Assembly (NCBI RefSeq): GCF_963676935.1
Contig: NZ_OY781470.1
Coordinates: 1,522,680-1,586,679 of the forward strand
Direction: 5' to 3'
Source: Halarcobacter sp.
Lineage (GTDB): Bacteria; Campylobacterota; Campylobacteria; Campylobacterales; Arcobacteraceae
Length of the DNA stretch: 64,000 bases
The translations under genes and the position numbers were made by a program. The stretch's first letter is position 1. Each line of letters begins with the position of its first letter. Below the pieces are notes generated by a model. The model saw only the letters and a program-made list of their open reading frames with translations, searched no databases and was not told the DNA's origin. This document shows positions 44,715 through 58,271 of this stretch, piece by piece.

Positions 44715-44993
44715 ATTTTCTCCATATAAAGCATAATATAATATTTGCACTATAGTAAAACAAGATTATAAAAACATTACCTAAAAATGTAAGTTGAAAA
44801 TTTCAGTTATTTTAATTATAGTATCTTAGGATATATAATACTTATACACTTTTCAACTTTTTAAATATCTTGACGATAAAGCACTTTATAAAGTTAATTA
44901 ATCAATATAAGACTATTGAGTTTAAGCTTGGTTTTTTATACCTAAAAAATCATCAATAATAATGATATTAAAAAATATTTTTATTTTAATATA

Positions 44994-45914
44994 TTACATT
45001 TTACAATGATTACAAAAAACCTCTTTCTCACTAAAAGTTTTCAATCCTTTTCGTTGTTCTTTTCCACAACTAATACAAACAAAACTTAACATTTCATTTC
45101 CCATATATTTTTTTGAGTTTTTAATATTTTTAAATTTTTTCATATTTTTTTCATTGTAAATACTATTTTCAATAATAACTTCTTCTACTTTTTCTTCTAT
45201 ATCATTTTTTATTTTATACTTAGTGTTATAATCAATATTTACAGGTTTATGTTCTGATACTAAAATATTCCCTATATTTTTAATCTCTTTTGTTGATGGT
45301 ATTTTGTTTATAATTATTTTTGCGGCAACTGTTAATACCTTTTTAGGACTATGTGCAAATTCATTATAAATAGAATCATAAAAAGTATCTGATCTTAAAA
45401 AGTTTTTTGGAAGAGTTTTATTTTTTATAATTACATTTGGTAAAAATACTACATAAGATAAAATATTTAACTTCATGTTGTATTTATCTAGGATCTTTTC
45501 TAAAACTAGCTCATGTCTTTTAGATTGTTCTAAAGGATTTGCTTGATTATAACTCTTATTTTTTCCATATTTATATAACATAGTTCCATCGTCATTTATA
45601 GTAACTTCTGCTTTTGTATTTTTAGTTTCAAGTAGTATTATTCCTATTGCTTTATTTATAAGCAAATGGTCTATTTGTGCAGTTAAACCATCTATTTCAA
45701 GTCTTAAATCATGAATAATTATATAATTTTCACTATCTTTTAAATTAAAATCTATAAAATAAGCTGTCTCTTTTTCTCCAATTAAACCAGTTTCTAATTT
45801 GGATAGTTCTTGTTTTATTAAATATTTTTGCTTTTCATTTTTTGATAAATTTAGCTTTTCTTTTAAAAGTTTAATATCTTCTTCTTTTTGTTTATCAATC
45901 TCTTTTAATATCAC
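44994..45914 (-). CDS. NERD-domain (nuclease-related) protein with C-terminal zinc ribbon
   Basis: A 306-aa protein. A charged helix (1-40) precedes a NERD domain with GLIGEKETAYF at 43-53, Asp82 in QIDHLLI and Glu96-Thr-Lys98 in LLETKN. These form the D...ExK core of the restriction-endonuclease fold. The C-terminus has two Cys pairs (CISC and CNHC), a zinc ribbon for nucleic acid. The GTG start overlaps the DUF2779 stop by four bases (GTGA) and AAAGGG precedes it, so it is the last cistron of the leftward nuclease string. NERD domains elsewhere are fused to helicases or kinases, which here occur as separate neighbours. Confidence 0.85.
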   Translation of the reverse strand: MILKEIDKQKEEDIKLLKEKLNLSKNEKQKYLIKQELSKLETGLIGEKETAYFIDFNLKDSENYIIIHDLRLEIDGLTAQIDHLLINKAIGIILLETKNTKAEVTINDDGTMLYKYGKNKSYNQANPLEQSKRHELVLEKILDKYNMKLNILSYVVFLPNVIIKNKTLPKNFLRSDTFYDSIYNEFAHSPKKVLTVAAKIIINKIPSTKEIKNIGNILVSEHKPVNIDYNTKYKIKNDIEEKVEEVIIENSIYNEKNMKKFKNIKNSKKYMGNEMLSFVCISCGKEQRKGLKTFSEKEVFCNHCKM

Positions 45915-47389
45915 TTTATACCCTTTAACTTTTCCAATATCTTCACCATAGCCAAAGTATCAAGATTACAATACTCTAAAAGTGAAGTTCTCATTTTCTC
46001 TTTACTTACCTCATCAAGTTTACTAAGATTTGCAAAGGTATTCATAGCTTGGCTTCCATTTTGTACACCATCTAACTCTTTGTAAGCTTTTTCAAATTCT
46101 GGTACAAGTGCTGGAAGTACATACTTTATAGAGTAACTTCCTTGCATACTTGGTGTTACGTACCATTTCTTTTGGAAAGGTACCATTAGGTCTTGCATAT
46201 TTTCATTTATGGCTAGTAGGTGTGAGCTTAAGTCAGGGAAAAGGTTTGCTAGTCTTTTTATCACACCTTTTTCAAAACTCATATTGTAAGCTAATACTGT
46301 AACATCACTTGGGATATCTTTACATAGTTTTAATGCTAACTCATATCTACTATCTACGCTATCCTTGCTCAAATACTCTTTATGCTCTAAAGTTCCATCT
46401 TCATACTCAATATGAAGTGAATATTGAAAAGGGATTTGCTCGAAGGGTTTTATTCCTTTGTATTGTGGTATGGCTTGTTGGTAGGTTTCAAAGTCTAAGT
46501 GATAGATTGGGTATGTGAGGTTTTCTAAAAAGGCTTTGATATTTTCTTTGTCTATATAGCTTGCTTTTGATTTGTAGTTTTCTACTGCTTGAGCTTGATT
46601 TGCAGTCATATCAAAATCTTCTGGAATATCTTCTATATCTATGATACCTTGATTGTATAATTCTACTTGCTTTTTACTTCCTAGATTGAAAATATTAAAG
46701 ATAGAATACTCAGGTATATCTCGCTGACACTTCCAACAATAGTTTTTAGCATCACACTCATAAGGTTTGTTACAATGTTTTCCTATATCTATATCTGGCT
46801 CATTTAGTTTATCTTCTAGATAAGTTTCAAACTCTTTTAATATGCTTGGGATATTTGACTGTAAACTTTGCACTTCACTTGTGACATCAACTATCTTAAA
46901 AAGCTTCTCTAACTCTAAAGACTCACCTCTTACATATTCGTTGTTTATATGTACTACATTTGCACTTTTTATACTAAAGCCTAAGTTTTCTAAAACATAA
47001 TACTGAATAGATACATCATGAAGATATATATCTTTTACTTCAGTTGAGCTTTTAACCTCATAGATAGATACAGCATCACTTTCTACAGTTAAAATATCAA
47101 CCATGATAAGTATGCCCTCATAGTTAAAAGTAGCTTCGTAGATATTTGATACACCCTCTTCCATCCACTCTTTTGTAGTAGTTATCATCTCATCATACTT
47201 TGTAGTGTATGGCACTTCTCTACCATCAGGGAAAAGTTGGCAAGCTAAGTCTCCTACTACATTTCCAGTTTCAAATATAGCCTGTGCTTGTTCATCTGGT
47301 GGTGTTAAGACACTTGGCTTGTATTTTTTAAGCCAAAGTGCTTTGGGGCATTGGATGCCTTTTGTGTATAGGGATTTAGATAGGTTCAT
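45911..47389 (-). CDS. DUF2779 protein: Cas4-like Fe-S nuclease fused to a DEDD exonuclease
   Basis: A 492-aa two-domain protein. Residues 1-225 look like a Cas4/RecB-type nuclease: Cys14 in KGIQCPKALWL, then Asp98, Glu111-Val-Lys113 and Gln129 as the PD-(D/E)XK core. A Cys cluster at 206, 212, 218 and 221 together with Cys14 can bind an iron-sulfur cluster. Residues 290-492 hold a DEDD exonuclease pattern: HLDFETYQQAIP (Asp299, Glu301), VLAYNMSFEKGVIKRL and EYCNLDTLAM. The ATG at 47389 lies inside the 3' end of the PLD gene. A decayed copy of its first 25 codons is at 52063-52139. Confidence 0.82.
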   Translation of the reverse strand: MNLSKSLYTKGIQCPKALWLKKYKPSVLTPPDEQAQAIFETGNVVGDLACQLFPDGREVPYTTKYDEMITTTKEWMEEGVSNIYEATFNYEGILIMVDILTVESDAVSIYEVKSSTEVKDIYLHDVSIQYYVLENLGFSIKSANVVHINNEYVRGESLELEKLFKIVDVTSEVQSLQSNIPSILKEFETYLEDKLNEPDIDIGKHCNKPYECDAKNYCWKCQRDIPEYSIFNIFNLGSKKQVELYNQGIIDIEDIPEDFDMTANQAQAVENYKSKASYIDKENIKAFLENLTYPIYHLDFETYQQAIPQYKGIKPFEQIPFQYSLHIEYEDGTLEHKEYLSKDSVDSRYELALKLCKDIPSDVTVLAYNMSFEKGVIKRLANLFPDLSSHLLAINENMQDLMVPFQKKWYVTPSMQGSYSIKYVLPALVPEFEKAYKELDGVQNGSQAMNTFANLSKLDEVSKEKMRTSLLEYCNLDTLAMVKILEKLKGIK

Positions 47390-48680
47390 TTGAATATTCT
47401 TCAATATTTTTTAAAATTTCACTTCTATCATTTAAAAATGTACCTTTTTCTTTCCTTTCTTCTCGATTTATATCTCCTTTAAAGGATGTCCAATTAAAAC
47501 TTGTTGTAATCATCCAATCTCTATCACAAATTAATATTTTGGAATGATCTTTTTCATTACGTGTAGTATAAACCAGTAAATTATTATATTTACTTCTCAT
47601 TTCATCAAAAAAATTTTTTGATTTTAAATCTAAATCTTCTCTTTTACCCATACCATAATTAAAAGTAATTTTTACATTTCTTCTTAAAGCATTTTCTATA
47701 AATACTTTTTTTTCTTTTATAACTTCCCACCTAATCCAAGGAGAAACTATTACAACTTCTTTTTTTGAATACTTAAATGCATAATCAAAGAACTTAGGAT
47801 GTTCATATGTACTTAATTGAGTACCATTATCTAAGTTATCTATTTCAGAATACTCTTTTATAGTTTTATCGTTTAATAGTTCGTTATGTTCTTCCTTAGC
47901 AAGTTTTGATAAATCAAATAAATTCTTTCCTTTTTGTTCAAAATCACTAACTATATTAGTTAGTTCATCATTAGGTTCACCATTATTTAAAATCAATACT
48001 TTTTTAGGATTATTTTCATTCTTAAAAAAAAGTGCATAATATTTTTTATGAAATTTATATGTATCTAATATTTCTTTTATTTCATATATCTCTTTCTCTT
48101 TATTATTTGTACTTTTTATACTTTCAAATAATACTGTCTGCAATGCTTTATTATTAACATTTTTATCCAATGTTTCAGTTTTGGGATATGGGATTTGTAC
48201 TCTTAAATTATTTTTATTTTTAGATTTATCTTTTTTTCGTTCGTCTGTCATATCTATAGAAATAGGAGTACCTAAAATAGCATCTAAAAGTACATATTTA
48301 TCATCTTCTTGAGTTGTAAGTATTCCACTATCATTTAGTACTTTAATACCTGCATCTGTTAAAGTTAAAATAGGTGTTTCTACAAATAGTTTATCGATAT
48401 GTAAGCGTGCAGCTAATTCTTCAAAGACTTCTTTGTCTAGAGCTAAAAAACTCTCAAGTTCATTTAAATCATTTATACCCTCTTTTATAGCACTTAAAAA
48501 AATCTCTTCTATTATTGATAATTTTGTTTTTTCTCTAAAAATACAATTACACGTGATTTTAAAATAAGGATAATAAAACTCTTGAATATCATACAGTTCA
48601 TATTTTTCATCAAGATAATACTCATAATATTTTCTTGCAAGTATTTCCTTATACTCTATAGTATTTTGTATATTATTCAT
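47376..48680 (-). CDS. Phospholipase-D-superfamily nuclease-like protein
   Basis: A 434-aa protein. The last 150 residues contain VVIVSPWIRWEVI and one HKD motif, HSKILICD (His379, Lys381, Asp386), followed by TSFNWTS, the usual Gly/Ser-Asn-Trp ending. A single HKD motif means that it would work as a dimer, as in Nuc and BfiI-type nucleases. The first 250 residues are helical with a winged-helix-like stretch and no known signature. It overlaps the kinase-helicase gene by eight bases. Its last codons reuse the start of the DUF2779 gene. PLD nucleases are part of several defence systems, for example DISARM. Confidence 0.8.
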   Translation of the reverse strand: MNNIQNTIEYKEILARKYYEYYLDEKYELYDIQEFYYPYFKITCNCIFREKTKLSIIEEIFLSAIKEGINDLNELESFLALDKEVFEELAARLHIDKLFVETPILTLTDAGIKVLNDSGILTTQEDDKYVLLDAILGTPISIDMTDERKKDKSKNKNNLRVQIPYPKTETLDKNVNNKALQTVLFESIKSTNNKEKEIYEIKEILDTYKFHKKYYALFFKNENNPKKVLILNNGEPNDELTNIVSDFEQKGKNLFDLSKLAKEEHNELLNDKTIKEYSEIDNLDNGTQLSTYEHPKFFDYAFKYSKKEVVIVSPWIRWEVIKEKKVFIENALRRNVKITFNYGMGKREDLDLKSKNFFDEMRSKYNNLLVYTTRNEKDHSKILICDRDWMITTSFNWTSFKGDINREERKEKGTFLNDRSEILKNIEEYSNEPI

Positions 48681-51600
48681 CCGTCACCTCTTTAATTTCA
48701 TAGTAATCTTTATTTTGATTAATCAATTCAATAATTTTTTTAAATGGATTATCGCCTTCTTTTAAATTACAACTATAAATAAAATTTGCATCTCCAACTA
48801 AAAACAATAACTCTTTTGTTCTTGAAAGGGCAACATTTAACCTCTTCTCATCAGCAATAAACTCTATATTTACTCTTGAGTCAGATTGACTTCGTACCAT
48901 ATCATAAATAATTATATCCCTATCACTTCCTTGAAATGCATCTACTGAGTTAATGGCAATGTCTAATTTATCAAATTTTGATTTTAATTGTCCAATAGAA
49001 GTTCGTAAATTATCCCGTTGAACCAAATAAGGTGTAATAATTCCTACAGATTTATATTTATCATATTTTGTTGCATTTAATTGAAGTTCTTCTAAAATTT
49101 TTATAATAACTTTTTTATTTGCATCATTAATTTTCCCCGTACCTCTTTGTTTATCAAATCTATCTTCAATATTTGAAGTATTATATAAATAAACTTTCTT
49201 TTCAAAGCCTAGCTGATGTTCTCTAACTAAATCATCTTTAGTTTCAATATTTCCAGAATAGAATACTTCACTGTACAATTTAGCAATACTTGAATGTGAA
49301 CGATAATTATATTTTAAAAAATGTTTAAAATCATTATGCTCTATTTTTTCATATAATTCTTCAAATAGTGTTGTTTCTAAATCTTTTTTATTGTAATCAG
49401 TCATTTTTGATAGAACAGTATCATCAACAATTGGTGGCAATTGATTATGATCTCCTACTAAAATAAATTTTTTTGCTTTTCTAAGTGGTATCATCAACTC
49501 AGGCAAAGTTGCTCTACCTGCTTCATCAACAATAATATAATCAAACTCTATACTTCTAAAATCTTGCCAACTACTTATTCCAACTAAAGTTCCAAAAATT
49601 ACTCTTATTTTTTTAAATAAAAGTGTTTTTAACTCATCATCACCTTGAAGTATAGTACTTTTCCATCTTTTATGAATAGAGTCTAATTTTTCTCCTTTTA
49701 AAAAGTAATTTGTATTATCACTTTCCAACCTTTTTTTAATTTCTTGTAAATAACTATAAAAAACTGATTCTTCATGATATTTTAGTGCTGTATCAGAAAA
49801 TTTACTTTTATCATTACCAAATCTAACAATTTTATTTTCATCTTTACATATTTTTTCCAATACATTATCTACTGCTTGATTAGATTGTGAAGTAACCAAA
49901 ATTTTAGCTAACTTATTTCTTTTCAAAATTTGTTGAATTATTTCTGTTATTACTGTAGTTTTACCTGTTCCTGGAGGTCCTTGAATAACAAGGTATTCAC
50001 CCATTTCTAAACTAAGAGCCTTTTCAACTGCTTCTTTTTGATTTTCATCTAATCTTTTATTAATTAGAAACTCTCTATCTATTTTAGGAATTTCTCTTTT
50101 GGGTGCAAGAGAGTTTGGATTAGAAATCTTACCCAGTAAGTTATCAATAATCGTATTATTGCTTTTTAAATCCTTTATTGAATATTCTTGCTTATTTAAT
50201 ACTCCACTACTACGAGCATAATCAAAAGATATTTTTATTTCATCTGGTATTTTTGATATTTCTTTATCATGTTTTAAATTTATTTCTTTTTTTATAACAT
50301 TTGTGTTTTGTACATAACATTGTGAATTAAACTTATTTTTTTTATTTACTCCCTCAACTATTACATCATCATTTTGTTCAAAAAAATCATCCTCTTCTTT
50401 TTGCTTAATTAAATACTCTGGATACATAAAGAATAATAAACTTGCATTAAATTCAAGTTTTTTCATATTACTTTTAATTTCTTCATATCTTGAAATTAAT
50501 ATATTCTTTACAACTTTTTGTTCTTTTTTTTGAATGATTGAAAGTTTTTTTGCTATATCATTTTTATTATTTTCAAAAAAGAAGTTTTCAATCAAACTAT
50601 TTAATAACTCCAGTAAATCTTGATTATTAGGATCATCAATAAAACCATCATCAAATAGTTTATGTACAAATTTTTCTTCTATTGTACTTTTTAAATGCTC
50701 TTTTTTAATCTTAATATTTGATTGATTAATGACTTTTGCTGTAAACTCTTTTTTTGCCTTCTTTATGTTTTTGGTATATGCATATAATGAAATATTCTTT
50801 TTATCTAGAATTGCTCTTTCAATTTTTAACTGCTGTTCTGTTTTTGTTAAAAAATCTTTTTTTTCTTTTCTTTCTTCTTTTTCTCTTGTTTCTTTTTTAT
50901 CTAATCTAATTAGCTTATCAATTAATTCATCAGTTGAATTATATTTAGATAAAGGACGTCCTTCTGATAATATAAATTTATCTTCTAATATATGTCCATT
51001 TTGTTTAATCGAATCTGGTACTCTTTGAGAATATCTAAAAACATAAAAGTGATCATTACTTTTAATGCCACAATAAAATACTAAATCATTAGTACAAATT
51101 TTTACTTGATCCCTGTCTTCTTGATCTTTACCATATTCTACATATTTGATTTCATTATTAAGTTTCTCATTTATAAATTCTAATATATCCCAAGGAGATT
51201 TATTATAGTCTTCAATTAATTGACTTTTTACTGTTTCACTAAGGTTTAACTCATATTCATTTTCAAAATTAAAGAAACTCAAAATATTGTTTATACGAGT
51301 GATAATTTCTTTAGCATTGTCAAACCTATAGCTTCTATCTTCATAAGTCATTTGTTTTAGAATATTTATTAATTCTTCATTTTTACCATCTGCAAAAAAA
51401 TCTATACTATTTATTAACTCATCTAGAGATATTTTCTTTTCAATGAATTTATCAAATAATTGTTCTTCTACTAAAGTTTCAATTATTGTAACACCCAAAG
51501 AATAAAAATCTGAACGTAAATCTACATCTAGATTATTCTTCTGTTCAGGACTCGCATACCATAATGATAATTCACTTACTGATTTAGTGATAGTATTTGA

Positions 51601-52035
51601 AATAGTTGCTGTCCCAAAATCTAATAAAAAAGGTTCTTTGTTGTAATTTACTATAATATTATTTGGCTTTAAATCATTATGAGTGTAATTATTCAAATGA
51701 ATATAATTTAATGCATCCAATATTTTATTTATAGTTTTTAAAAAACTATATTTTTTTCTATCATTATTTAAATTCCTAAATGCAGAAGAAATAGTTTCAC
51801 CTTGAATATACTTAAATAATAAATAATAATAAGCTTCATCTTCCTCTGAACTTTCAATTTTCACTACATTTTTATGAACTAGCTTTTCTAAAGCTTTTAT
51901 CTCATGAAGATAAATTGTAGAATATTCATTACTATTTTTTGGATATACTTTTACTATTAACTTTTCATCCTTAAGATTTTTTACTAATAATACATTATTT
52001 TTTATTTTTTCAATTAATTCGTAACTTTTTAACAA
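48673..52035 (-). CDS. Serine/threonine kinase fused to a UPF1-like SF1 helicase
   Basis: A 1120-aa fusion. Residues 1-260 are a protein kinase: Lys29, Glu45, HND at 119-121 followed by LKPNN, DFG at 139-141 and ASPEQ at 161-165. All catalytic residues are present, but Arg of HRD is Asn (a non-RD kinase). Residues 260-650 are a charged helical region with no known motif. Residues 650-1120 are an SF1B helicase: Walker A GPPGTGKTT near 684, DEAG near 837, GDHNQLPP, YRSHSSI, DAFQGSDRD and NVALSRTKE. The start is TTG at 52035 with AAGGAT eight bases ahead. It is coupled to the PLD gene. Role in phage or plasmid defence is inferred. Confidence 0.85.
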   Translation of the reverse strand: MLKSYELIEKIKNNVLLVKNLKDEKLIVKVYPKNSNEYSTIYLHEIKALEKLVHKNVVKIESSEEDEAYYYLLFKYIQGETISSAFRNLNNDRKKYSFLKTINKILDALNYIHLNNYTHNDLKPNNIIVNYNKEPFLLDFGTATISNTITKSVSELSLWYASPEQKNNLDVDLRSDFYSLGVTIIETLVEEQLFDKFIEKKISLDELINSIDFFADGKNEELINILKQMTYEDRSYRFDNAKEIITRINNILSFFNFENEYELNLSETVKSQLIEDYNKSPWDILEFINEKLNNEIKYVEYGKDQEDRDQVKICTNDLVFYCGIKSNDHFYVFRYSQRVPDSIKQNGHILEDKFILSEGRPLSKYNSTDELIDKLIRLDKKETREKEERKEKKDFLTKTEQQLKIERAILDKKNISLYAYTKNIKKAKKEFTAKVINQSNIKIKKEHLKSTIEEKFVHKLFDDGFIDDPNNQDLLELLNSLIENFFFENNKNDIAKKLSIIQKKEQKVVKNILISRYEEIKSNMKKLEFNASLLFFMYPEYLIKQKEEDDFFEQNDDVIVEGVNKKNKFNSQCYVQNTNVIKKEINLKHDKEISKIPDEIKISFDYARSSGVLNKQEYSIKDLKSNNTIIDNLLGKISNPNSLAPKREIPKIDREFLINKRLDENQKEAVEKALSLEMGEYLVIQGPPGTGKTTVITEIIQQILKRNKLAKILVTSQSNQAVDNVLEKICKDENKIVRFGNDKSKFSDTALKYHEESVFYSYLQEIKKRLESDNTNYFLKGEKLDSIHKRWKSTILQGDDELKTLLFKKIRVIFGTLVGISSWQDFRSIEFDYIIVDEAGRATLPELMIPLRKAKKFILVGDHNQLPPIVDDTVLSKMTDYNKKDLETTLFEELYEKIEHNDFKHFLKYNYRSHSSIAKLYSEVFYSGNIETKDDLVREHQLGFEKKVYLYNTSNIEDRFDKQRGTGKINDANKKVIIKILEELQLNATKYDKYKSVGIITPYLVQRDNLRTSIGQLKSKFDKLDIAINSVDAFQGSDRDIIIYDMVRSQSDSRVNIEFIADEKRLNVALSRTKELLFLVGDANFIYSCNLKEGDNPFKKIIELINQNKDYYEIKEVTDE

Positions 52036-52062: not shown

Positions 52063-52139
52063 CTTGGCTTATATTTTTTAAGCTAAAGTGCTTTGGAGCA
52101 TTGGATACCTTTTGTGTAGAGGGATTTAGAGATATTCAT
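52063..52139 (-). pseudogene. Decayed 5' fragment of a DUF2779 gene (25 codons)
   Basis: This 77-bp stretch matches the start of the intact DUF2779 gene (47389 leftward to 47313) at about 69 of 77 positions. It keeps ATG, the KGIQC segment and the Lys-Lys-Tyr-Lys-Pro end, but codon 19 is TAG where the intact gene has Trp. Homology stops abruptly at 52063. The ATG lies one base after the OLD-gene stop, as expected if OLD and DUF2779 were once direct neighbours. It is best read as the footprint of insertion or replacement of the kinase-helicase/PLD cassette. Confidence 0.85.
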
Positions 52140-52140
52140 A

Positions 52141-53910
52141 TTAATGTTCACTAATTTCTTTTAAGTATTTAAGTATTGGAACAGTATCTATACTATCATG
52201 TTCTAAATTACAACTTAATATTTCTTTCCAGTATTTATTAGCAAAATACGGTTTTCCATGTGAACCTGTATATCTTGGTAATCTTAATAACTCTTCAACA
52301 GAATTATCTTGATGAGCAGGTTCAAAGGTAGTATTATGGACTCTTAAGATACCTACATTTAAGTCTGTATTGTCTGAATCTAATTTTATTTGTTCATAAA
52401 TAGTTTTTTGAATTCCTGATGTAAATATAGGATTAGAATATTGATCAACACCTTCTTGTACACTAGAGTCTGTATCACAAATAACATGATATTTAATATT
52501 AAATTTAGAAAAAACTTTTTGGTAAAATGGAATATTATTAACTGTTCCACAATTTACAATAAAAATATCTTTTTTACAATCTACTTCAGAAAAATAACCT
52601 CTTAGAATAATTTCTTCTGTAGGACCTTCAATTAAAATTACTTCATCAGCATAAAAAGATTCACAAATAAAAGGATTAAATCTTAAAACTTCATTCATTT
52701 CATCTTTTAGTTGTGATACTGAAATCTCTTTTACATCTGACAAATATTTATCATTAATTTGAAATAGTTTAGTACCTAATTCATTATTTATCATTCTTAT
52801 TAATGAAGATTTTGGTTTTGAAATATCTATCATTTGAGGGGAATGAGATGCACATAAAACTTGATATGGAAATTTATCTTCTGTAACTTTATAAATTAAA
52901 GTTCTTAGTTCTTTCATTAATCTTGGATGTAAAAATAGTTCAGGCTCCTCAAATAGAACTAGATAATCTTTTCTATTTTCTTCTCTTTTGAATTCTTCAG
53001 CGATATCTCTCATTAATAATAGTGTAAATATTGCAGTTCTTATAGCACCATGACCTACTTTATCATAACTATTAGGAACTGATGAATCTAGTTTTCCATC
53101 TTCTTTTAATTTATTAAAATGTATACTAAATTTTTTACCAAACTTACTTTCTGACCAAACTACTTTATCTTTTTCAGTTAATTCAATTTTAATATTCGGA
53201 AATAAATCTGCAAAATGTTCATTAACATCTTTTTTATATTTTTTTATTGCTTTTGGGTTATACAATTTATCTTGTAAATCTTTAATTGTTTGCTGTGCTT
53301 TTTTTAATTCTTCTCTTTCAGAATCCTTTAAACCTTTTGTTAATTTATCTGCAAGTATAGAATTTATTATATCTTCAACTTCTGTTTCAGAAGGCATTGC
53401 TTTAATAAAAATTGGTCGTGGCAATAATGATTGAAATACACCATCTAAACCTATTCCTCCATAATTTTTTTCTTTCCAATCATTTTCCTCTGGATATTCC
53501 CAATTTTCATTATCATTATTTAAAGTATAATTTTTTACATTCTCAATTTTACCTTGTAATGACAACTCATATATCCTTCTTATTTTAAGACAATTATTCT
53601 TTAGCCATTTATCTTTTAAAGATTTAGATTTTCCCGGAGCATTACTTTCAATTCTACTAAAATCAAGTTCATCAAGTTCAAACATAAAAACAAATTCAAT
53701 TTTAGTTCCTTCTAATTTTTTAAAAAAGTCATCAATGGTAGGTTTTTGGTTTGAAAAGAAAAATTCATAAGATTTTAAAAATGTTGACTTACCAACATTA
53801 TTTTGTCCAAATAAAAAAATTGTGTTTGTATTATTAAAATCAATTAAATTATTTTCTATTCCACCTGATATGCCTCTAAAGTTATTTACACCAAATTCTA
53901 ATATTTTCAT
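52141..53910 (-). CDS. OLD-family ATPase/TOPRIM endonuclease (class 1)
   Basis: A 589-aa protein. The N-terminal ABC/SMC-type ATPase has Walker A GQNNVGKS at 35-42, a coiled insertion around 190-225, Walker B in LVLFEEPELFLHP near 315-328 and a switch His in CASHSPQM. The C-terminal TOPRIM domain has the catalytic Glu in VILIEGPTEE near 425 and the metal Asp pair in HVICDTDSS near 480. Class 1 OLD nucleases act on DNA and include GajA of Gabija. Here the neighbour is a kinase-helicase rather than the UvrD-like GajB. It follows sbcC after 15 bases. Confidence 0.87.
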   Translation of the reverse strand: MKILEFGVNNFRGISGGIENNLIDFNNTNTIFLFGQNNVGKSTFLKSYEFFFSNQKPTIDDFFKKLEGTKIEFVFMFELDELDFSRIESNAPGKSKSLKDKWLKNNCLKIRRIYELSLQGKIENVKNYTLNNDNENWEYPEENDWKEKNYGGIGLDGVFQSLLPRPIFIKAMPSETEVEDIINSILADKLTKGLKDSEREELKKAQQTIKDLQDKLYNPKAIKKYKKDVNEHFADLFPNIKIELTEKDKVVWSESKFGKKFSIHFNKLKEDGKLDSSVPNSYDKVGHGAIRTAIFTLLLMRDIAEEFKREENRKDYLVLFEEPELFLHPRLMKELRTLIYKVTEDKFPYQVLCASHSPQMIDISKPKSSLIRMINNELGTKLFQINDKYLSDVKEISVSQLKDEMNEVLRFNPFICESFYADEVILIEGPTEEIILRGYFSEVDCKKDIFIVNCGTVNNIPFYQKVFSKFNIKYHVICDTDSSVQEGVDQYSNPIFTSGIQKTIYEQIKLDSDNTDLNVGILRVHNTTFEPAHQDNSVEELLRLPRYTGSHGKPYFANKYWKEILSCNLEHDSIDTVPILKYLKEISEH

Positions 53911-53925
53911 TTAAATCCTTATATT

Positions 53926-56900
53926 CTAATTTATATTCAACACACTCGTCCCATCACCTTTAGGCTCAACCTTTATCTGCAATGGAATTCTCTCTTTTAG
54001 TGCTTCCACATGGGAAATCACACCTACCATTTTTCCACTACTTTGTAGTTGATTTAGTGCATTTAGTGCTAGTTCTAAACTATCGCTATCTAGTGTTCCA
54101 AACCCCTCATCTAGGAAAAGTGAATCTATACTTATCTTTTGGCTTGCTAGGCTTGATAGTCCTAAGGCTAAAGATAGACTTACTATGAAGCTTTCTCCCC
54201 CTGAGAGTGTGTTTACACCTCTTACCACATCTCCTTGGAAGCCGTCAATTATCTCTATATCTAAGAGTTTGTTTGATTCTGTGTTTCTTTGGAGTTCATA
54301 TCTTGGGCTTAGTATTTCTAGGTGTTTGTTTGCTAGGTAGATTAGTTGGTCTAGGGTTATACCTTGGGCAAATTTGGCGAATTTATCCCCTTGGCTTGAG
54401 CCTATCATTTCATTTAGTTTTACCCATACTTGGAAGGCTTGTTTTTTCTTTTCAAGTTGTTTTATTTTGTCTTCTGATTTTTTTATATTTTGGGTATTTA
54501 TCTCTAACTCTTTTGAGATACTTCCTATGGTTTCTTGTAGTTGATCTATTGTGCTTTGTAGGTTTTGTAACTCTTTGTTTATATCATCTTTATTTTGATT
54601 TGTAGGGTTTATCTCTTTTTCTAAGAGTTTGTGTTCCTTTAGTTTTTTGTTTGTATCTGTTTTTAGAGTTTGTATTTGTGTGTATTTCTCTTCTATGGTT
54701 TTGCATAGATTTGTTAGGGTTTCAAACTCCTCTTTTGGTAAGTTTGCTTTTTCAAACTCGTCTTGTGAATTGAAGCCATACTCTACTAAAGCTTTTTCAA
54801 ACTTCTCTTTTATGATTACAAGGTTTTGTTTATCATCTTCTTGTTTTTTGTTTAGTTGAATTATCTGTTTTGATAGAGATTCATCTTTTGATTTTAGGCT
54901 TGAAAGATGGTTTTGTAAACTGTTATATTGTTTTGAAACAGTGTCTAAACTCTCTTGGATATTTTTCTCAAAAAAGTCTAAATCTTCTATGTCTAAGATA
55001 TTTTTGCTTTGGATTTGAAGCTTTGTTATCTCTTCTTTTAGTTTTGATTGTTCCTCTTTTAACTCTTTTATAGTGTTTATACTTGTATTTATCTGCTGTT
55101 GTTTTTGTAGCTCTTTATTTAAAGATGCTTGTAGAGACTCTTTTTTTACTTGTAAAGACTCTTTTTGCTCTCTTAAAGCAACATACTCTTTTAGCTCGTT
55201 TTCGCAAAATTGCATTTGCTCTTGTAGTGTGGCTTTTGAGTCTTCTTGTACTTTGAAATCGTTTGTTTTAAAAAACTCTTCTATTTGCTCTTTTGTAGTT
55301 TGTTGTTTTTGTATTTCTAGGTTTGAGCTTTCAAGTTTTGAGCTAAGTTTTGCTAGGTTTATTTGAGCGTTGTTTAGTTCACTGTTTTGCTCTTGTAGAT
55401 AACTTTCTTGCTCTTTTATTTTAGCTGTCGTTTTGTCTATGTCAATATTTAAAGAGTGGTTTATATATGGATGCTCTTTTGAGCCACATAAAAAGCACTC
55501 TTGCCCATCTTTTAGTTTAGCTCTATCTTGCTCGTAGTTTTTGATAAGAAGCTCTTTTTCTCTTGTTTGTTTTAGTGAGTTTAGAGTTTCGTTTATTTGG
55601 TTTATTAGTTTTGTTTTTTCTTGGTTTAGTTTTGTTTGTGATTCTATTTGAACGTTGTATTCTTTTATCTTGTTTTGTTCTTGTGTGATTTGCTCTTGTA
55701 GTGTTTCATAATCACTTAGGGCTTTTAGAAGTACCTCTATCTCTTTTAATTTGGCTCTTGTGTTTTGCTCTTTTTGGTTTATATCTTTTGTTTTGGTTTC
55801 TAGTGCTTTGTATTGTTCTATTAGAGTTTCTAACTGCTCTTTTTTTGTGTCTAGATTTGATGAGAAGTTTTTGTATAGATTGTCTATTTGTGATTCGTCA
55901 TTTAAAAGTGTTTCAAAAGCTATCTCAAAATGCTTTGCTAACTCTTGTAGGTGTTGTGAGATTTTTTTGCTTTTTTCTATGAAAAGTTGGTTTTTACCAT
56001 CACTTTGTGTTTTTATAGTTCTTAGTTCTTTTAGTTTTTTATAGTTTTCATTGTATGTTGTTTGCTCTTTTTCAAGGCTTTGTTTTGAGAGTTTGAACTC
56101 TTGCTCTTTTGTTTGGATTTGTTCTTTTAACTCTTTGTCTTCTTTTTGCAAAGATTCTAAGCTTTGTTTATCATTTGTGATTGTATTTATTAGTTGGTTT
56201 TTCTCTTGGTTTAGTGCTTGTATTCTTATGGCTTTGTTTGCTAATTCAAGCTTTGTAAATTGCTCTTTATTGTTCTCTTTTTCTTTGCTTATTTGCTCGA
56301 ACTCTTGGTTGTATTTTAGACTATCAACTTCTAGTTTATCAAGTGTTTCTAGATAATTTGATAGTTTTTTTAGTTCGGTTTCTTTTTTATCTAGTTCTTG
56401 TTTTTCTTTTTTGTTTGTTTCTAGTTGTTTTGTTTTTTCTTCTACTATGTTTGGCTCTAGTAATTCTATACTTCCTAATGCTATCTCATCTGCTTCTATC
56501 TCTTTTTTCTTGTGTGAGTATGTTTCATAGATACTTTGTGAGATCTGTTTGTAGATATATGTTCCAGTGATTTTTTCTAAAAGATTTGAACGTTCGTTTT
56601 CTTTAGCTTTTAAAAAGGCATCAAAACTTCCTTGGGCTAACATCATAGATTGAACAAATCTATCAAAATCAAGCCCTGAGATTTCTTCTACTACCTTTGG
56701 TACTTTTGAAAGGTACGATTCTAGTATTTTATTTGTGTCTAGTTCAACTATCTCCATCTTTGCAGATTGGAAATTTCCATTTGGATTTTTTCTTGCTCTT
56801 TTTTGCGCCCAAGAACTTCTATAGACTTTGCCTTTGATTTCAAACTCCACTTCACATAAACACTCGCCTGTGTGTCTGCTCATCAGGTCATTTGGGTTTG

Positions 56901-57081
56901 TTAGTCTGGCTGTTCTTCCATATAAAGCACAAGTGATTACATCTAGGATTGTACTTTTCCCTGCTCCAGTTGGTCCTGTTATGGCAAAAAGAGATTCATC
57001 TTTTAGAAACTCTTGAAAGTCTATTTCAAACTCACCTTTTAGGGAGTTTATATTTTGTAGTCTTACTTTTAGTATCTTCAT
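53926..57081 (-). CDS. sbcC: Exonuclease subunit SbcC
   Basis: A 1051-aa SMC-like ATPase of the Mre11-Rad50 type. Walker A ITGPTGAGKST is at about 33-43. Two very long coiled coils (about 180-500 and 550-880) meet at a zinc hook, ECFLCGSKEHP near 525-535. The C-terminal half has the signature NTLSGGESFIVSLSLAL and Walker B SLFLDEGFGTLD. With SbcD it opens hairpins and trims protein-blocked DNA ends. Its stop-poor opposite strand gives many false frames. Its start overlaps the sbcD stop by one base. Confidence 0.95.
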   Translation of the reverse strand: MKILKVRLQNINSLKGEFEIDFQEFLKDESLFAITGPTGAGKSTILDVITCALYGRTARLTNPNDLMSRHTGECLCEVEFEIKGKVYRSSWAQKRARKNPNGNFQSAKMEIVELDTNKILESYLSKVPKVVEEISGLDFDRFVQSMMLAQGSFDAFLKAKENERSNLLEKITGTYIYKQISQSIYETYSHKKKEIEADEIALGSIELLEPNIVEEKTKQLETNKKEKQELDKKETELKKLSNYLETLDKLEVDSLKYNQEFEQISKEKENNKEQFTKLELANKAIRIQALNQEKNQLINTITNDKQSLESLQKEDKELKEQIQTKEQEFKLSKQSLEKEQTTYNENYKKLKELRTIKTQSDGKNQLFIEKSKKISQHLQELAKHFEIAFETLLNDESQIDNLYKNFSSNLDTKKEQLETLIEQYKALETKTKDINQKEQNTRAKLKEIEVLLKALSDYETLQEQITQEQNKIKEYNVQIESQTKLNQEKTKLINQINETLNSLKQTREKELLIKNYEQDRAKLKDGQECFLCGSKEHPYINHSLNIDIDKTTAKIKEQESYLQEQNSELNNAQINLAKLSSKLESSNLEIQKQQTTKEQIEEFFKTNDFKVQEDSKATLQEQMQFCENELKEYVALREQKESLQVKKESLQASLNKELQKQQQINTSINTIKELKEEQSKLKEEITKLQIQSKNILDIEDLDFFEKNIQESLDTVSKQYNSLQNHLSSLKSKDESLSKQIIQLNKKQEDDKQNLVIIKEKFEKALVEYGFNSQDEFEKANLPKEEFETLTNLCKTIEEKYTQIQTLKTDTNKKLKEHKLLEKEINPTNQNKDDINKELQNLQSTIDQLQETIGSISKELEINTQNIKKSEDKIKQLEKKKQAFQVWVKLNEMIGSSQGDKFAKFAQGITLDQLIYLANKHLEILSPRYELQRNTESNKLLDIEIIDGFQGDVVRGVNTLSGGESFIVSLSLALGLSSLASQKISIDSLFLDEGFGTLDSDSLELALNALNQLQSSGKMVGVISHVEALKERIPLQIKVEPKGDGTSVLNIN

Positions 57082-58271
57082 TAGATTTGTTCCTCTTGAT
57101 GAAGATTTGAGACTACTTCTTTAAAAGTTTGAGATAACTGTTCTTTAAACTCTTTATTTTCTATCTCTTCTAACTCTAATCTTTTTTCAAAGACCTCTTG
57201 CACACTTAGTTCATCTAGGCTTATAGCTTTTAACTCTTTTGCTCTTAATTGCTTTTCGCTTTTTTCTATTTTAACAGCTAGGATTGTTAGCTCTAGTTTT
57301 GTGGCTAACTCTCTTATCTTAGTATTTGCAAACATTGGGTTGTCATCTTTTATATGAACTTCTATCCATGTTGTTTTATCTTCGATAGCTTTTAGCTCTT
57401 TTTTTATAGTTTCCAAATCACCTTTGATAACTTGAAGCTTTCTTTTTAAAGGGATTTCTAATTCTTCTACTTCTACATTTTTCCCTATAGTTACTAGATT
57501 TACCTTTTGAGTGTTTTTTGATTCAGAAAAACTAAGTGGTATTGGAGAGCCAGAATATCTTACATGTTCATTTCCTACAGTTTGATTGATATGTAAGTGT
57601 CCTAAAGCTACATAGTCAAACATACTAGCTAAATAATCCCCACCAATATCAAGTGTTCCACCTATATAAATATCTCTTTCACTTTCACTACTTCTACTAC
57701 CAACTGTAGTCAAGTGTCCCATAGCTATAATAGGTGTATTTGAGTCTAATTCTTTTGCTTTGTTGTAGGCTTTTTCATAGTAAGCTTTGATACCATTGTT
57801 TGCTAATTTTTCTTTGTCACTTACTGTCTCACCGCCAAGTGATTGTCTTATGACGCTATCTCTTAAAAATGGTACTGCACAAACTACCGCTTTAGTAGTA
57901 TCGCCCTCTTTTATAGGGATGATTATGTTTTCATTTTCATCACCATTTACTATTACATGTACATTTAGTGCTTCAAGTAGTTGCTTTGGTGCTTTTAAAG
58001 TTGAGACAGAGTCATGATTTCCAGCAGTGATGATTGTAGTATTTAAACTATTTACTTGTGATAGTTGTTTTAAAAAGTTGTAGTAAAGTTCAAGTGCATA
58101 GTTTGGTGGTGTTCCTGTATCAAAAATATCTCCTGATACAAGTAATACATCTATATTATTTTCTTTTATTGTATTTAAAAGCCAAGATAAAAAAGCTTGA
58201 TGCTCTTCAATTCTGCTTTTTCCCATGAAGTTTTGACCTAAGTGCCAGTCAGAAGTGTGTAATAATTTCAA
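57081..58271 (-). CDS. sbcD: Exonuclease subunit SbcD (Mre11-like)
   Basis: A 396-aa metallophosphoesterase nuclease. Motifs in order: LLHTSDWHLGQNF, VSGDIFDTGTPPN, TAGNHDS, MGHLTTVG and LGHLHINQTVG, giving all metal ligands of Mre11-type nucleases. The C-terminal 150 residues form the capping and SbcC-binding region. It is the first gene of the long leftward string sbcD-sbcC-OLD-kinase/helicase-PLD-DUF2779-NERD. Confidence 0.95.
   Translation of the reverse strand: MKLLHTSDWHLGQNFMGKSRIEEHQAFLSWLLNTIKENNIDVLLVSGDIFDTGTPPNYALELYYNFLKQLSQVNSLNTTIITAGNHDSVSTLKAPKQLLEALNVHVIVNGDENENIIIPIKEGDTTKAVVCAVPFLRDSVIRQSLGGETVSDKEKLANNGIKAYYEKAYNKAKELDSNTPIIAMGHLTTVGSRSSESERDIYIGGTLDIGGDYLASMFDYVALGHLHINQTVGNEHVRYSGSPIPLSFSESKNTQKVNLVTIGKNVEVEELEIPLKRKLQVIKGDLETIKKELKAIEDKTTWIEVHIKDDNPMFANTKIRELATKLELTILAVKIEKSEKQLRAKELKAISLDELSVQEVFEKRLELEEIENKEFKEQLSQTFKEVVSNLHQEEQI

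What the first reader, a model, noticed from the sequence alone, without database searches (positions are those of the whole stretch)
52063..52139. Decayed duplicate of the DUF2779 gene start marks an insertion or swap
Seen: 77 bp after the OLD gene match the first 25 codons of the intact DUF2779 gene 4.7 kb away (about 90% identity), with Trp19 turned into a stop and a sharp end of homology. It sits where DUF2779 would start if it once followed OLD directly. Inference: a cassette with kinase-helicase, PLD and a DUF2779 allele replaced or displaced the native DUF2779 gene, leaving its 5' end. This gives a natural right boundary for the mobile unit and suggests a hot spot.
Basis: seen in the sequence. 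Interest (0 to 1): 0.8.

Follow-up and report, generated by a model that had tools for sequence, protein, structure and literature searches.

The report
Gene-end scar in a defence slot
The 77-base fragment is the leftover beginning of another copy of a boundary gene, in a chromosome and plasmid slot where these bacteria keep swapping anti-phage defence genes; such leftovers mark where cassettes were added and appear to serve as handles for later swaps.

Summary
In detail: window 52063-52139 (-) matches the first 77 nt of the live DUF2779 gene at 69 of 77 positions, with Trp19 turned into a stop, one base behind the OLD stop codon. Between the copies lie Mokosh MkoA and MkoB. In Arcobacteraceae, sbcDC and DUF2779 bracket a tight slot: 27 loci carry 26 different gene sets, and 26 of 27 have a protein with a PADLOC profile hit. 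The slot also occurs on plasmids, one of which carries this same fragment and cassette. Extra DUF2779 copies are nearly always gene ends; three are clear internal deletions. Five gene families that directly follow such a scar in one genome follow a full-length DUF2779 in another. So the fragment is best read as the remnant of an earlier DUF2779. Against a genus-mate the Mokosh segment differs at 0.8% of sites, the scar at 10%, the live DUF2779 at 9%: the exchanged unit ends in the two DUF2779 5' ends, which behaved as homology arms. Hot spot and boundary are supported; a DUF2779 allele travelling with the cassette is not. Whether the scar formed by decay of a complete copy or by duplication at insertion is open. 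No OLD-DUF2779 locus without the cassette was found.

The parts
52063..52139 (-). scar: first 77 nt (25 codons) of a DUF2779 gene, Trp19 to stop; left homology arm of the Mokosh cassette
48673..52035 (-). MkoA: protein kinase + SF1 helicase of Mokosh type I
   Evidence: PADLOC MkoA E=4.2e-188; Pfam Pkinase, AAA_11, AAA_12
47376..48680 (-). MkoB: PLD-like protein of Mokosh type I
   Evidence: PADLOC MkoB E=1.2e-53; PLDc_2
47313..47389 (-). 5' end of the live DUF2779 gene; right homology arm
45911..47389 (-). live DUF2779 gene (ORF from 47404 TTG, ATG at 47389); right anchor of the slot
   Evidence: PF11074 E=4.4e-47
52141..53910 (-). OLD family ATPase-TOPRIM protein, other cargo of the slot
53926..57081 (-). 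sbcC, left anchor of the slot
57081..58271 (-). sbcD, left anchor
44994..45914 (-). NERD-domain gene in a second slot, between the DUF2779 stop and its usual 3' flank
   Evidence: PF08378; 3' flank repeats
44916..44998 (-). sequence that follows the DUF2779 stop within about 15 bp in G005, G015 and G002, here displaced behind NERD

Best explanation
The fragment is a scar: the 5' end of an older DUF2779 gene in an sbcD-sbcC-[defence cargo]-DUF2779 slot found on chromosomes and plasmids of Arcobacteraceae. SHOWN: (1) the slot is tight, mostly co-directional and filled with different genes, many with defence profiles, in nearly every genome. (2) Extra DUF2779 copies in the slot are almost only gene ends, and three are visible internal deletions of a once complete gene. 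(3) The Mokosh cassette recurs behind the same scar with different left neighbours, once on a plasmid. (4) In the G000-G007 pair the near-identical segment is bounded by the two DUF2779 5' ends. INFERRED: a new cassette arrives next to a resident DUF2779 by recombination that uses DUF2779 (or the sbcC 3' end) as homology. One DUF2779 stays live and the redundant copy is lost except for its 5' end. That stump and the live gene's 5' end then act as two homology arms, so that the segment between them can be swapped by ordinary RecA-type recombination, without an integrase, from plasmid or transforming DNA.
For: Repeat and own-genome search. Slot: 27 loci, 26 cargo sets, 101 of 107 cargo ORFs co-directional, median 12 bp from sbcC stop to cargo and 3 bp from cargo to DUF2779. 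PADLOC profile hits in 26 of 27 loci, 21 scanned directly and 5 by sharing a scanned family. Extra copies per 100-nt window along DUF2779: 19, 16, 5, 3, 1, 1, 0, 0 from the 5' end and 3, 5, 8 at the 3' end; in between only one 5'-truncated gene, which is also among the 3' counts. Clear internal deletions in G047, G014 and G079. Five cargo families follow a scar in one genome and full-length DUF2779 in another; pairs G078/G047, G090/G012, G049/G048 aligned. G000 vs G007 differences: scar 8/77, MkoAB segment 36/4673, rest of DUF2779 130/1439; Fisher p = 3.7e-7 for scar vs segment (borders chosen after seeing the alignment). Plasmid siblings break within about 15 bp of the sbcC stop and DUF2779 start in five comparisons. 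DUF2779 and sbcC trees reject each other.
Against: For the Mokosh scar itself no DUF2779 3' end could be found behind it (score 5.9 in G000; 95% of random stretches lie below 8.9), and in none of the three loci known does MkoA stand directly behind a complete DUF2779. No tandem of two complete DUF2779 genes was seen in the 53 loci. In G012 the scars are 96.6% and 98.7% identical to its own live gene, which fits direct duplication at insertion as well as decay of an old copy. If G000 or G007 had received the cassette at a single resident DUF2779, its two 5' ends should match between nt 21 and 69; in each genome they differ at 5 of 49 positions (read off the sequences), so an existing pair of arms, or allele replacement, must be assumed.
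Confidence: 0.7

Rival explanations
1. Insertion with long target duplication or homology-facilitated illegitimate recombination: the cassette entered at the 5' end of the one resident DUF2779 in a single step and duplicated about 77 nt of it; a complete older copy never stood behind OLD.
For: Polarity: where a live gene is present, 5' scars lie only upstream of it (11 scars in 9 loci, perhaps 7 independent events; none downstream), 3' tails downstream (G010, G005, G027). In G012 the second scar is 77/78 identical to its own live gene, and G090 shows the state without that insertion. The Mokosh scar shows no DUF2779 3' end. Precedent in Helicobacter pylori (PMC1643837, passages).
Against: Three scars (G047, G014, G079) still have coding 3' end of DUF2779 behind the 5' part, and four more have its 3' flank, which a plain target duplication does not make. 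Five cargo families follow scars in some genomes and full-length DUF2779 in others.
Confidence: 0.24
2. The 5' end of DUF2779 is a recombinase attachment site; the two copies are att-like sites of an integrating element.
For: Direct repeats at both ends of a 4.7 kb unit; two short dyads in the common 5' end (seen by eye).
Against: Scar lengths vary from about 48 to 388 nt. No recombinase, integrase or transposase family among ten window proteins between 43.7 and 60.3 kb. Synonymous conservation of the 5' end is within the range of the rest of the gene. sbcC 3' ends leave scars as well.
Confidence: 0.03
3. The fragment is a conserved leader or regulatory element of mkoA.
For: All three cassette loci keep it with the same junction; in G007 it is an open 36-codon frame ending at the mkoA start.
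Against: The frame is closed by TAG at codon 19 in G000 and by TAA shortly behind the fragment in G027; between G000 and G007 it differs at 8/77 while the next 4.7 kb differ at 0.8%.
Confidence: 0.03

Closest known systems
Core defence hotspots (Pseudomonas aeruginosa cDHS1/2, PMC10250203, passages seen)
   Same: fixed flanking genes, different defence systems in each isolate; exchange by homologous recombination in the flanks was proposed there
   Different: here the flanks are nuclease genes in the same direction as the cargo, the slot also sits on plasmids and in different surroundings, there is no tRNA/tmRNA in the window, and it carries gene-end scars
Insertion with long target duplication of restriction-modification genes in Helicobacter pylori (Nobusato et al. 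2000, cited in PMC3031569 and PMC1643837, passages seen; original not seen)
   Same: long direct repeats of target sequence around a defence cassette, in a Campylobacterota
   Different: several scars here still show the 3' end or 3' flank of a former complete gene, and the arms bound a later exchange
Sequential displacement of T6SS effector modules in Vibrio cholerae (PMC5361080, passages seen)
   Same: stepwise module addition that leaves remnants of displaced genes; transfer of arrays by homologous recombination, homology-facilitated illegitimate recombination proposed
   Different: cargo is anti-phage defence; the remnant is of the fixed boundary gene, not of the displaced cargo
Mokosh type I defence system
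   Same: MkoA and MkoB profiles match two adjacent genes
   Different: no difference found; activity not tested

Membership tests
Mokosh type I | MkoA kinase-helicase next to MkoB PLD protein | tested here: met
   PADLOC E=4.2e-188 and 1.2e-53, overlapping neighbours; the definition of the type is recalled
Mokosh type I | anti-phage activity | not testable with these tools
   no assay
Core defence hotspot | same flanking genes with varying defence cargo | tested here: met
   26 distinct sets in 27 loci; PADLOC profile hits in 26 of 27, not complete systems by PADLOC's rules
Core defence hotspot | one fixed chromosomal position in all genomes | tested here: not met
   genes outside sbcD differ between genomes and some loci are plasmid-borne; so it works like such a hotspot but is not filed as one
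Insertion with long target duplication | direct repeats of target sequence flank the inserted genes | tested here: met
Insertion with long target duplication | uninterrupted single-copy target in a close relative | tested here: inconclusive
   no OLD-DUF2779 locus; for another cassette G090 is such a relative of G012
Integron or att-site element | site-specific recombinase or constant short site | tested here: not met
   none among the ten window proteins examined; scar ends vary

The most novel reading that the evidence does not exclude
sbcD-sbcC and DUF2779 are an active chassis for capturing defence genes. The SbcCD nuclease and the predicted PD-(D/E)XK plus 3'-5' exonuclease DUF2779 process incoming DNA ends, so that cassettes are captured between the 3' end of sbcC and the 5' end of DUF2779: an integrase-free counterpart of an integron, whose scars record the order of capture.
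Probability: 0.1. Interest if true: 0.9.

Novelty: new variant of a known kind. Interest (0 to 1): 0.56.

Why it matters
How defence hotspots are built is described as unexplained for Pseudomonas aeruginosa, and recombination in conserved flanks would, its authors say, leave no scars of mobile elements (PMC10250203, passages). Here the boundary gene leaves scars, so additions, their order and exchange boundaries can be read, and the slot is seen on both chromosomes and plasmids. It also gives a simple handle (sbcC 3' end, DUF2779 5' end) for finding new defence systems in Arcobacteraceae: 10 of 40 cargo proteins scanned had no PADLOC hit.

Tried and rejected
Special DNA site at the DUF2779 5' end: codon-level conservation corrected for codon usage was 0.58 and 0.43 in the first two 13-codon windows for pairs at 70-85% identity, against 0.30 (SD 0.15, maximum 0.67) elsewhere; for pairs below 70% it was 0.17 and -0.09 against 0.18. 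Not exceptional. An uncorrected version was also unremarkable, though third-position GC is raised in the first 20 codons (0.41, elsewhere at most 0.31).

DUF2779 3' end behind the Mokosh scar: not found above chance.

OLD followed directly by DUF2779, or MkoA directly behind a complete DUF2779: not found.

Viral contigs as vehicle: no relatives of DUF2779 or MkoA; this kind of scan finds close relatives only. Solved structures for DUF2779: no sequence match up to E 0.1.

I first read the second sbcC 3' end in G002 as a foreign homology arm; the alignment shows a local tandem duplication across the sbcC/cargo junction instead, so it is not used as evidence for arms.

Literature behind the novelty statement: 'Arcobacter' with 'defense island', none; 'defense islands' with 'gene remnants' and 'recombination', none; 'defense hotspot' with 'homologous recombination' and 'flanking', 5 listed, passages of one seen; 'DUF2779', 6 listed, passages of two seen; Mokosh, 15 listed of 31, none opened.

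Full report
CHECK. The fragment is real and exactly placed. Window 52063-52139 (-) matches the first 77 nt of the live DUF2779 gene (ATG at 47389) at 69 of 77 positions, with codon 19 changed from Trp to stop. The repeat reported by the tool is 102 nt at 84%. A search of the window's own 3.1 Mb genome with those 102 nt found only these two places, the fragment at E = 3.1e-26. The fragment's ATG lies one base behind the OLD stop codon.

WHAT LIES BETWEEN THE COPIES. The 4.7 kb hold MkoA (protein kinase plus SF1 helicase, PADLOC E = 4.2e-188) and MkoB (PLD-like, E = 1.2e-53), that is a Mokosh-type defence system. Upstream are OLD, sbcC and sbcD, downstream DUF2779 and a NERD-domain gene. No tRNA in the window and no recombinase family among ten proteins examined.

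SAMPLE. DUF2779 was sought in 16 genus genomes (13 with a match) and 104 family genomes (55 with a match). I fetched loci from 47 further genomes of those 55; with the window this makes 53 loci from 48 genomes. G037, G052, G055, G058, G059, G074 and G075 were not fetched, nor every copy in genomes with several. Some loci were fetched because they showed fragments, so the sample is not random. 43 loci have a full-length DUF2779; G015 and G027 among them have an early frame break, and G036b looks like a second assembly copy of G036a.

THE SLOT. In 27 of the 43, a near-complete sbcC (one of two versions about 25% identical to each other) lies upstream of DUF2779 on the stretch. The other 16 include short contigs, loci with only sbcC or sbcD remnants, and the most distant DUF2779 genes. 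In the 27 loci the space between sbcC and DUF2779 is 2.6-11.4 kb, with a median of 12 bp from sbcC stop to first cargo gene and 3 bp from last cargo gene to DUF2779. 101 of 107 cargo ORFs point the same way; the other six are in G048 and G049. 26 of 27 sets of cargo families (140 aa or more) are different, the repeat being G029a and G078. I scanned 40 cargo proteins against PADLOC; 30 had a hit at E <= 1e-5. With OLD, MkoA and MkoB of the window this covers 43 of 64 cargo families. Hits include proteins of Lamassu, Hachiman (HamB), Gabija, SIR2-HerA, Qat, Ppl, OLD, dGTPase and PADLOC's candidate systems; Ppl-like hits in G003 and G012 are partial (E about 1e-23). 21 loci have a directly scanned hit, 5 more (G006, G077, G078, G031, G061) share a family with a scanned one, and G047 has none among two scanned. 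These are single-protein profile hits, not complete systems by PADLOC's rules.

PLASMIDS. pAFAEC carries sbcC, SIR2, a HerA-type gene, a DUF6602 gene, the scar, MkoA (93%), MkoB (88%) and DUF2779. DUF2779 matches 30 of 72,556 plasmid records, six of them at 80-90% identity. p133_LEO_107 and pCNAC48 share ParAB, RelA/SpoT and sbcDC; their cargo before DUF2779 is only partly and distantly alike (65-73% over parts). In five comparisons among four such plasmids, matching sequence stops within about 15 bp of the sbcC stop and resumes within about 15 bp of the DUF2779 start.

SCARS. Profiles of 100-nt windows along DUF2779, same strand, were searched in all 53 loci, leaving out each full-length gene itself. 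From the 5' end the counts were 19, 16, 5, 3, 1, 1, 0, 0; from nt 580 to 1220 only G083, a 5'-truncated gene; at the 3' end 3, 5, 8 (G083 in each), then 0 in the downstream flank. Two of the 19 are weak and come from the duplicated G036 contigs. Where a full-length gene is present, 11 scars in 9 loci lie upstream of it and none downstream, with 0.2-7.9 kb downstream available; the G036 hits are left out of that count, and shared descent reduces the 11 to perhaps 7 events. 3' tails lie downstream of the live gene in G010, G005 and G027. Of 18 scar positions examined, 11 are followed by sequence that follows, or ends, DUF2779 elsewhere: coding 3' end in G047, G014 and G079; 3' flank in G012 (twice), G090 and G001; and the first codons of the gene that follows DUF2779 in G081, G084, G077 and G048 (E from 2e-50 to 1e-3; no random control was run). 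The 7 without are the three Mokosh loci, G102, a second scar in G048, G029b and G036a.

BEFORE AND AFTER. Five cargo families directly follow a scar in one genome and a full-length DUF2779 in another: an 896-aa helicase (scar in G081, G084, G077; gene in G031), a 694-aa protein (G048; G049), a phospholipase C-like protein (G047; G078), a Bro-N protein (G012, G001; G006) and a PD-T4-5-like protein (G012, G090; G015). G047 against G078 is a clear internal deletion: nt 1-236 joined, over 13 bp, to nt 1407 onwards, with the following genes 85% alike. G090 has scar-cargo-DUF2779, G012 has scar-cargo-scar (78 nt)-new cargo-DUF2779. So scars generally mark former gene positions, and the array grows stepwise. 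Against this, the scars of G012 are 96.6% and 98.7% identical to its own live gene, and G090's 94.4%, while the others range from 79 to 92%; local duplication at insertion would explain G012 as well.

THE MOKOSH UNIT. Among 398 genomes drawn from the order, MkoA has matches at E <= 1e-60 in G000, G007, G027 and, partial and 47% identical, G255. The first three have the same scar end and MkoA start, behind OLD, a Ppl-type gene and SIR2-HerA plus a DUF6602 gene respectively. G000 against G007: 8 of 77 differences in the scar, 36 of 4673 in the MkoAB segment (19 of them within about 300 bp), 2 of 30 and then 130 of 1439 in DUF2779, gaps left out. Scar against segment gives Fisher p = 3.7e-7; the borders were chosen after seeing the alignment and sites are not strictly independent. 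The last scar difference is at nt 69, the first DUF2779 difference at nt 21. The recently shared DNA is thus MkoAB, bounded by the two DUF2779 5' ends; DUF2779 itself did not travel. Because the two 5' ends within each genome differ at 5 of 49 positions between nt 21 and 69 (sequences), the receiver probably already had two arms (a swap), or an older Mokosh allele was replaced.

FUNCTION OF THE SCAR. It is not a conserved leader: G000 has a stop at codon 19, G027 a stop just behind the fragment, G007 an open frame. It is not a special recombination site by the tests made. Its likely effect is passive: a stretch of homology. The genome has ComEC and DprA family genes, but the same searches ring in 10 and 11 of 14 control genomes, so competence is not shown. 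Plasmids are the better documented vehicle.

TREES. In 17 genomes with sbcD, sbcC of the first version and DUF2779, the DUF2779 alignment rejects the sbcC tree (p-AU 5.6e-4), sbcC rejects the DUF2779 tree (1.5e-34), and sbcD rejects both (1.5e-5, 4.5e-3). G010, for example, has DUF2779 at 92% but sbcC at 74% to the window's. The parts of the locus have separate histories.

DUF2779 is placed in the 3'-5' exonuclease clade of RNase H-like proteins and is accompanied by a DUF83, PD-(D/E)XK-like region (PMC3985635, passages). An Arcobacter cryaerophilus plasmid table lists SbcD, SbcC, DUF2779 and dGTPase in this order, without comment on a slot in the one passage seen (PMC6690266).

VERDICT. Features of known kinds (defence hotspot, module displacement, long target duplication) combine here in a form that I did not find described by the searches named.

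Noticed in passing
window 44916-45914: A NERD gene sits between the DUF2779 stop and the sequence that follows DUF2779 in several relatives, so there is a second slot downstream; plasmids vary likewise between DUF2779 and dgt.
   Followed up: partly
L022 871-4345; also L053, L070, L079, L086, L027, L030, L031: sbcD-sbcC itself occurs in two versions only about 25% alike in the same place, and isolated sbcC 3' ends or sbcD/sbcC stumps remain in other loci, e.g. G099b, G085, G048, G009.
   Followed up: partly
L118 9001-10491 (pAFAEC) and L025 near 8638 (- strand): The DUF2779 genes here have early frame breaks; pAFAEC is annotated with two proteins in that stretch.
   Followed up: no
L119 13645-21594: On Aliarcobacter cryaerophilus plasmid pCNAC48 macrolide resistance genes (ere(B)-like, msr(D), mef(A)) and transposases follow the slot.
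   Followed up: no
L108, L109: Contigs titled Helicobacter pylori PMSS1 (a MAG) carry DUF2779 79-80% identical to the window's and look like a mislabelled Arcobacteraceae bin (the label was not tested further).
   Followed up: no
window 49069-49366: 19 of the 36 differences between the G000 and G007 copies of the MkoAB segment fall here, inside mkoA, which suggests a small recombination tract.
   Followed up: no
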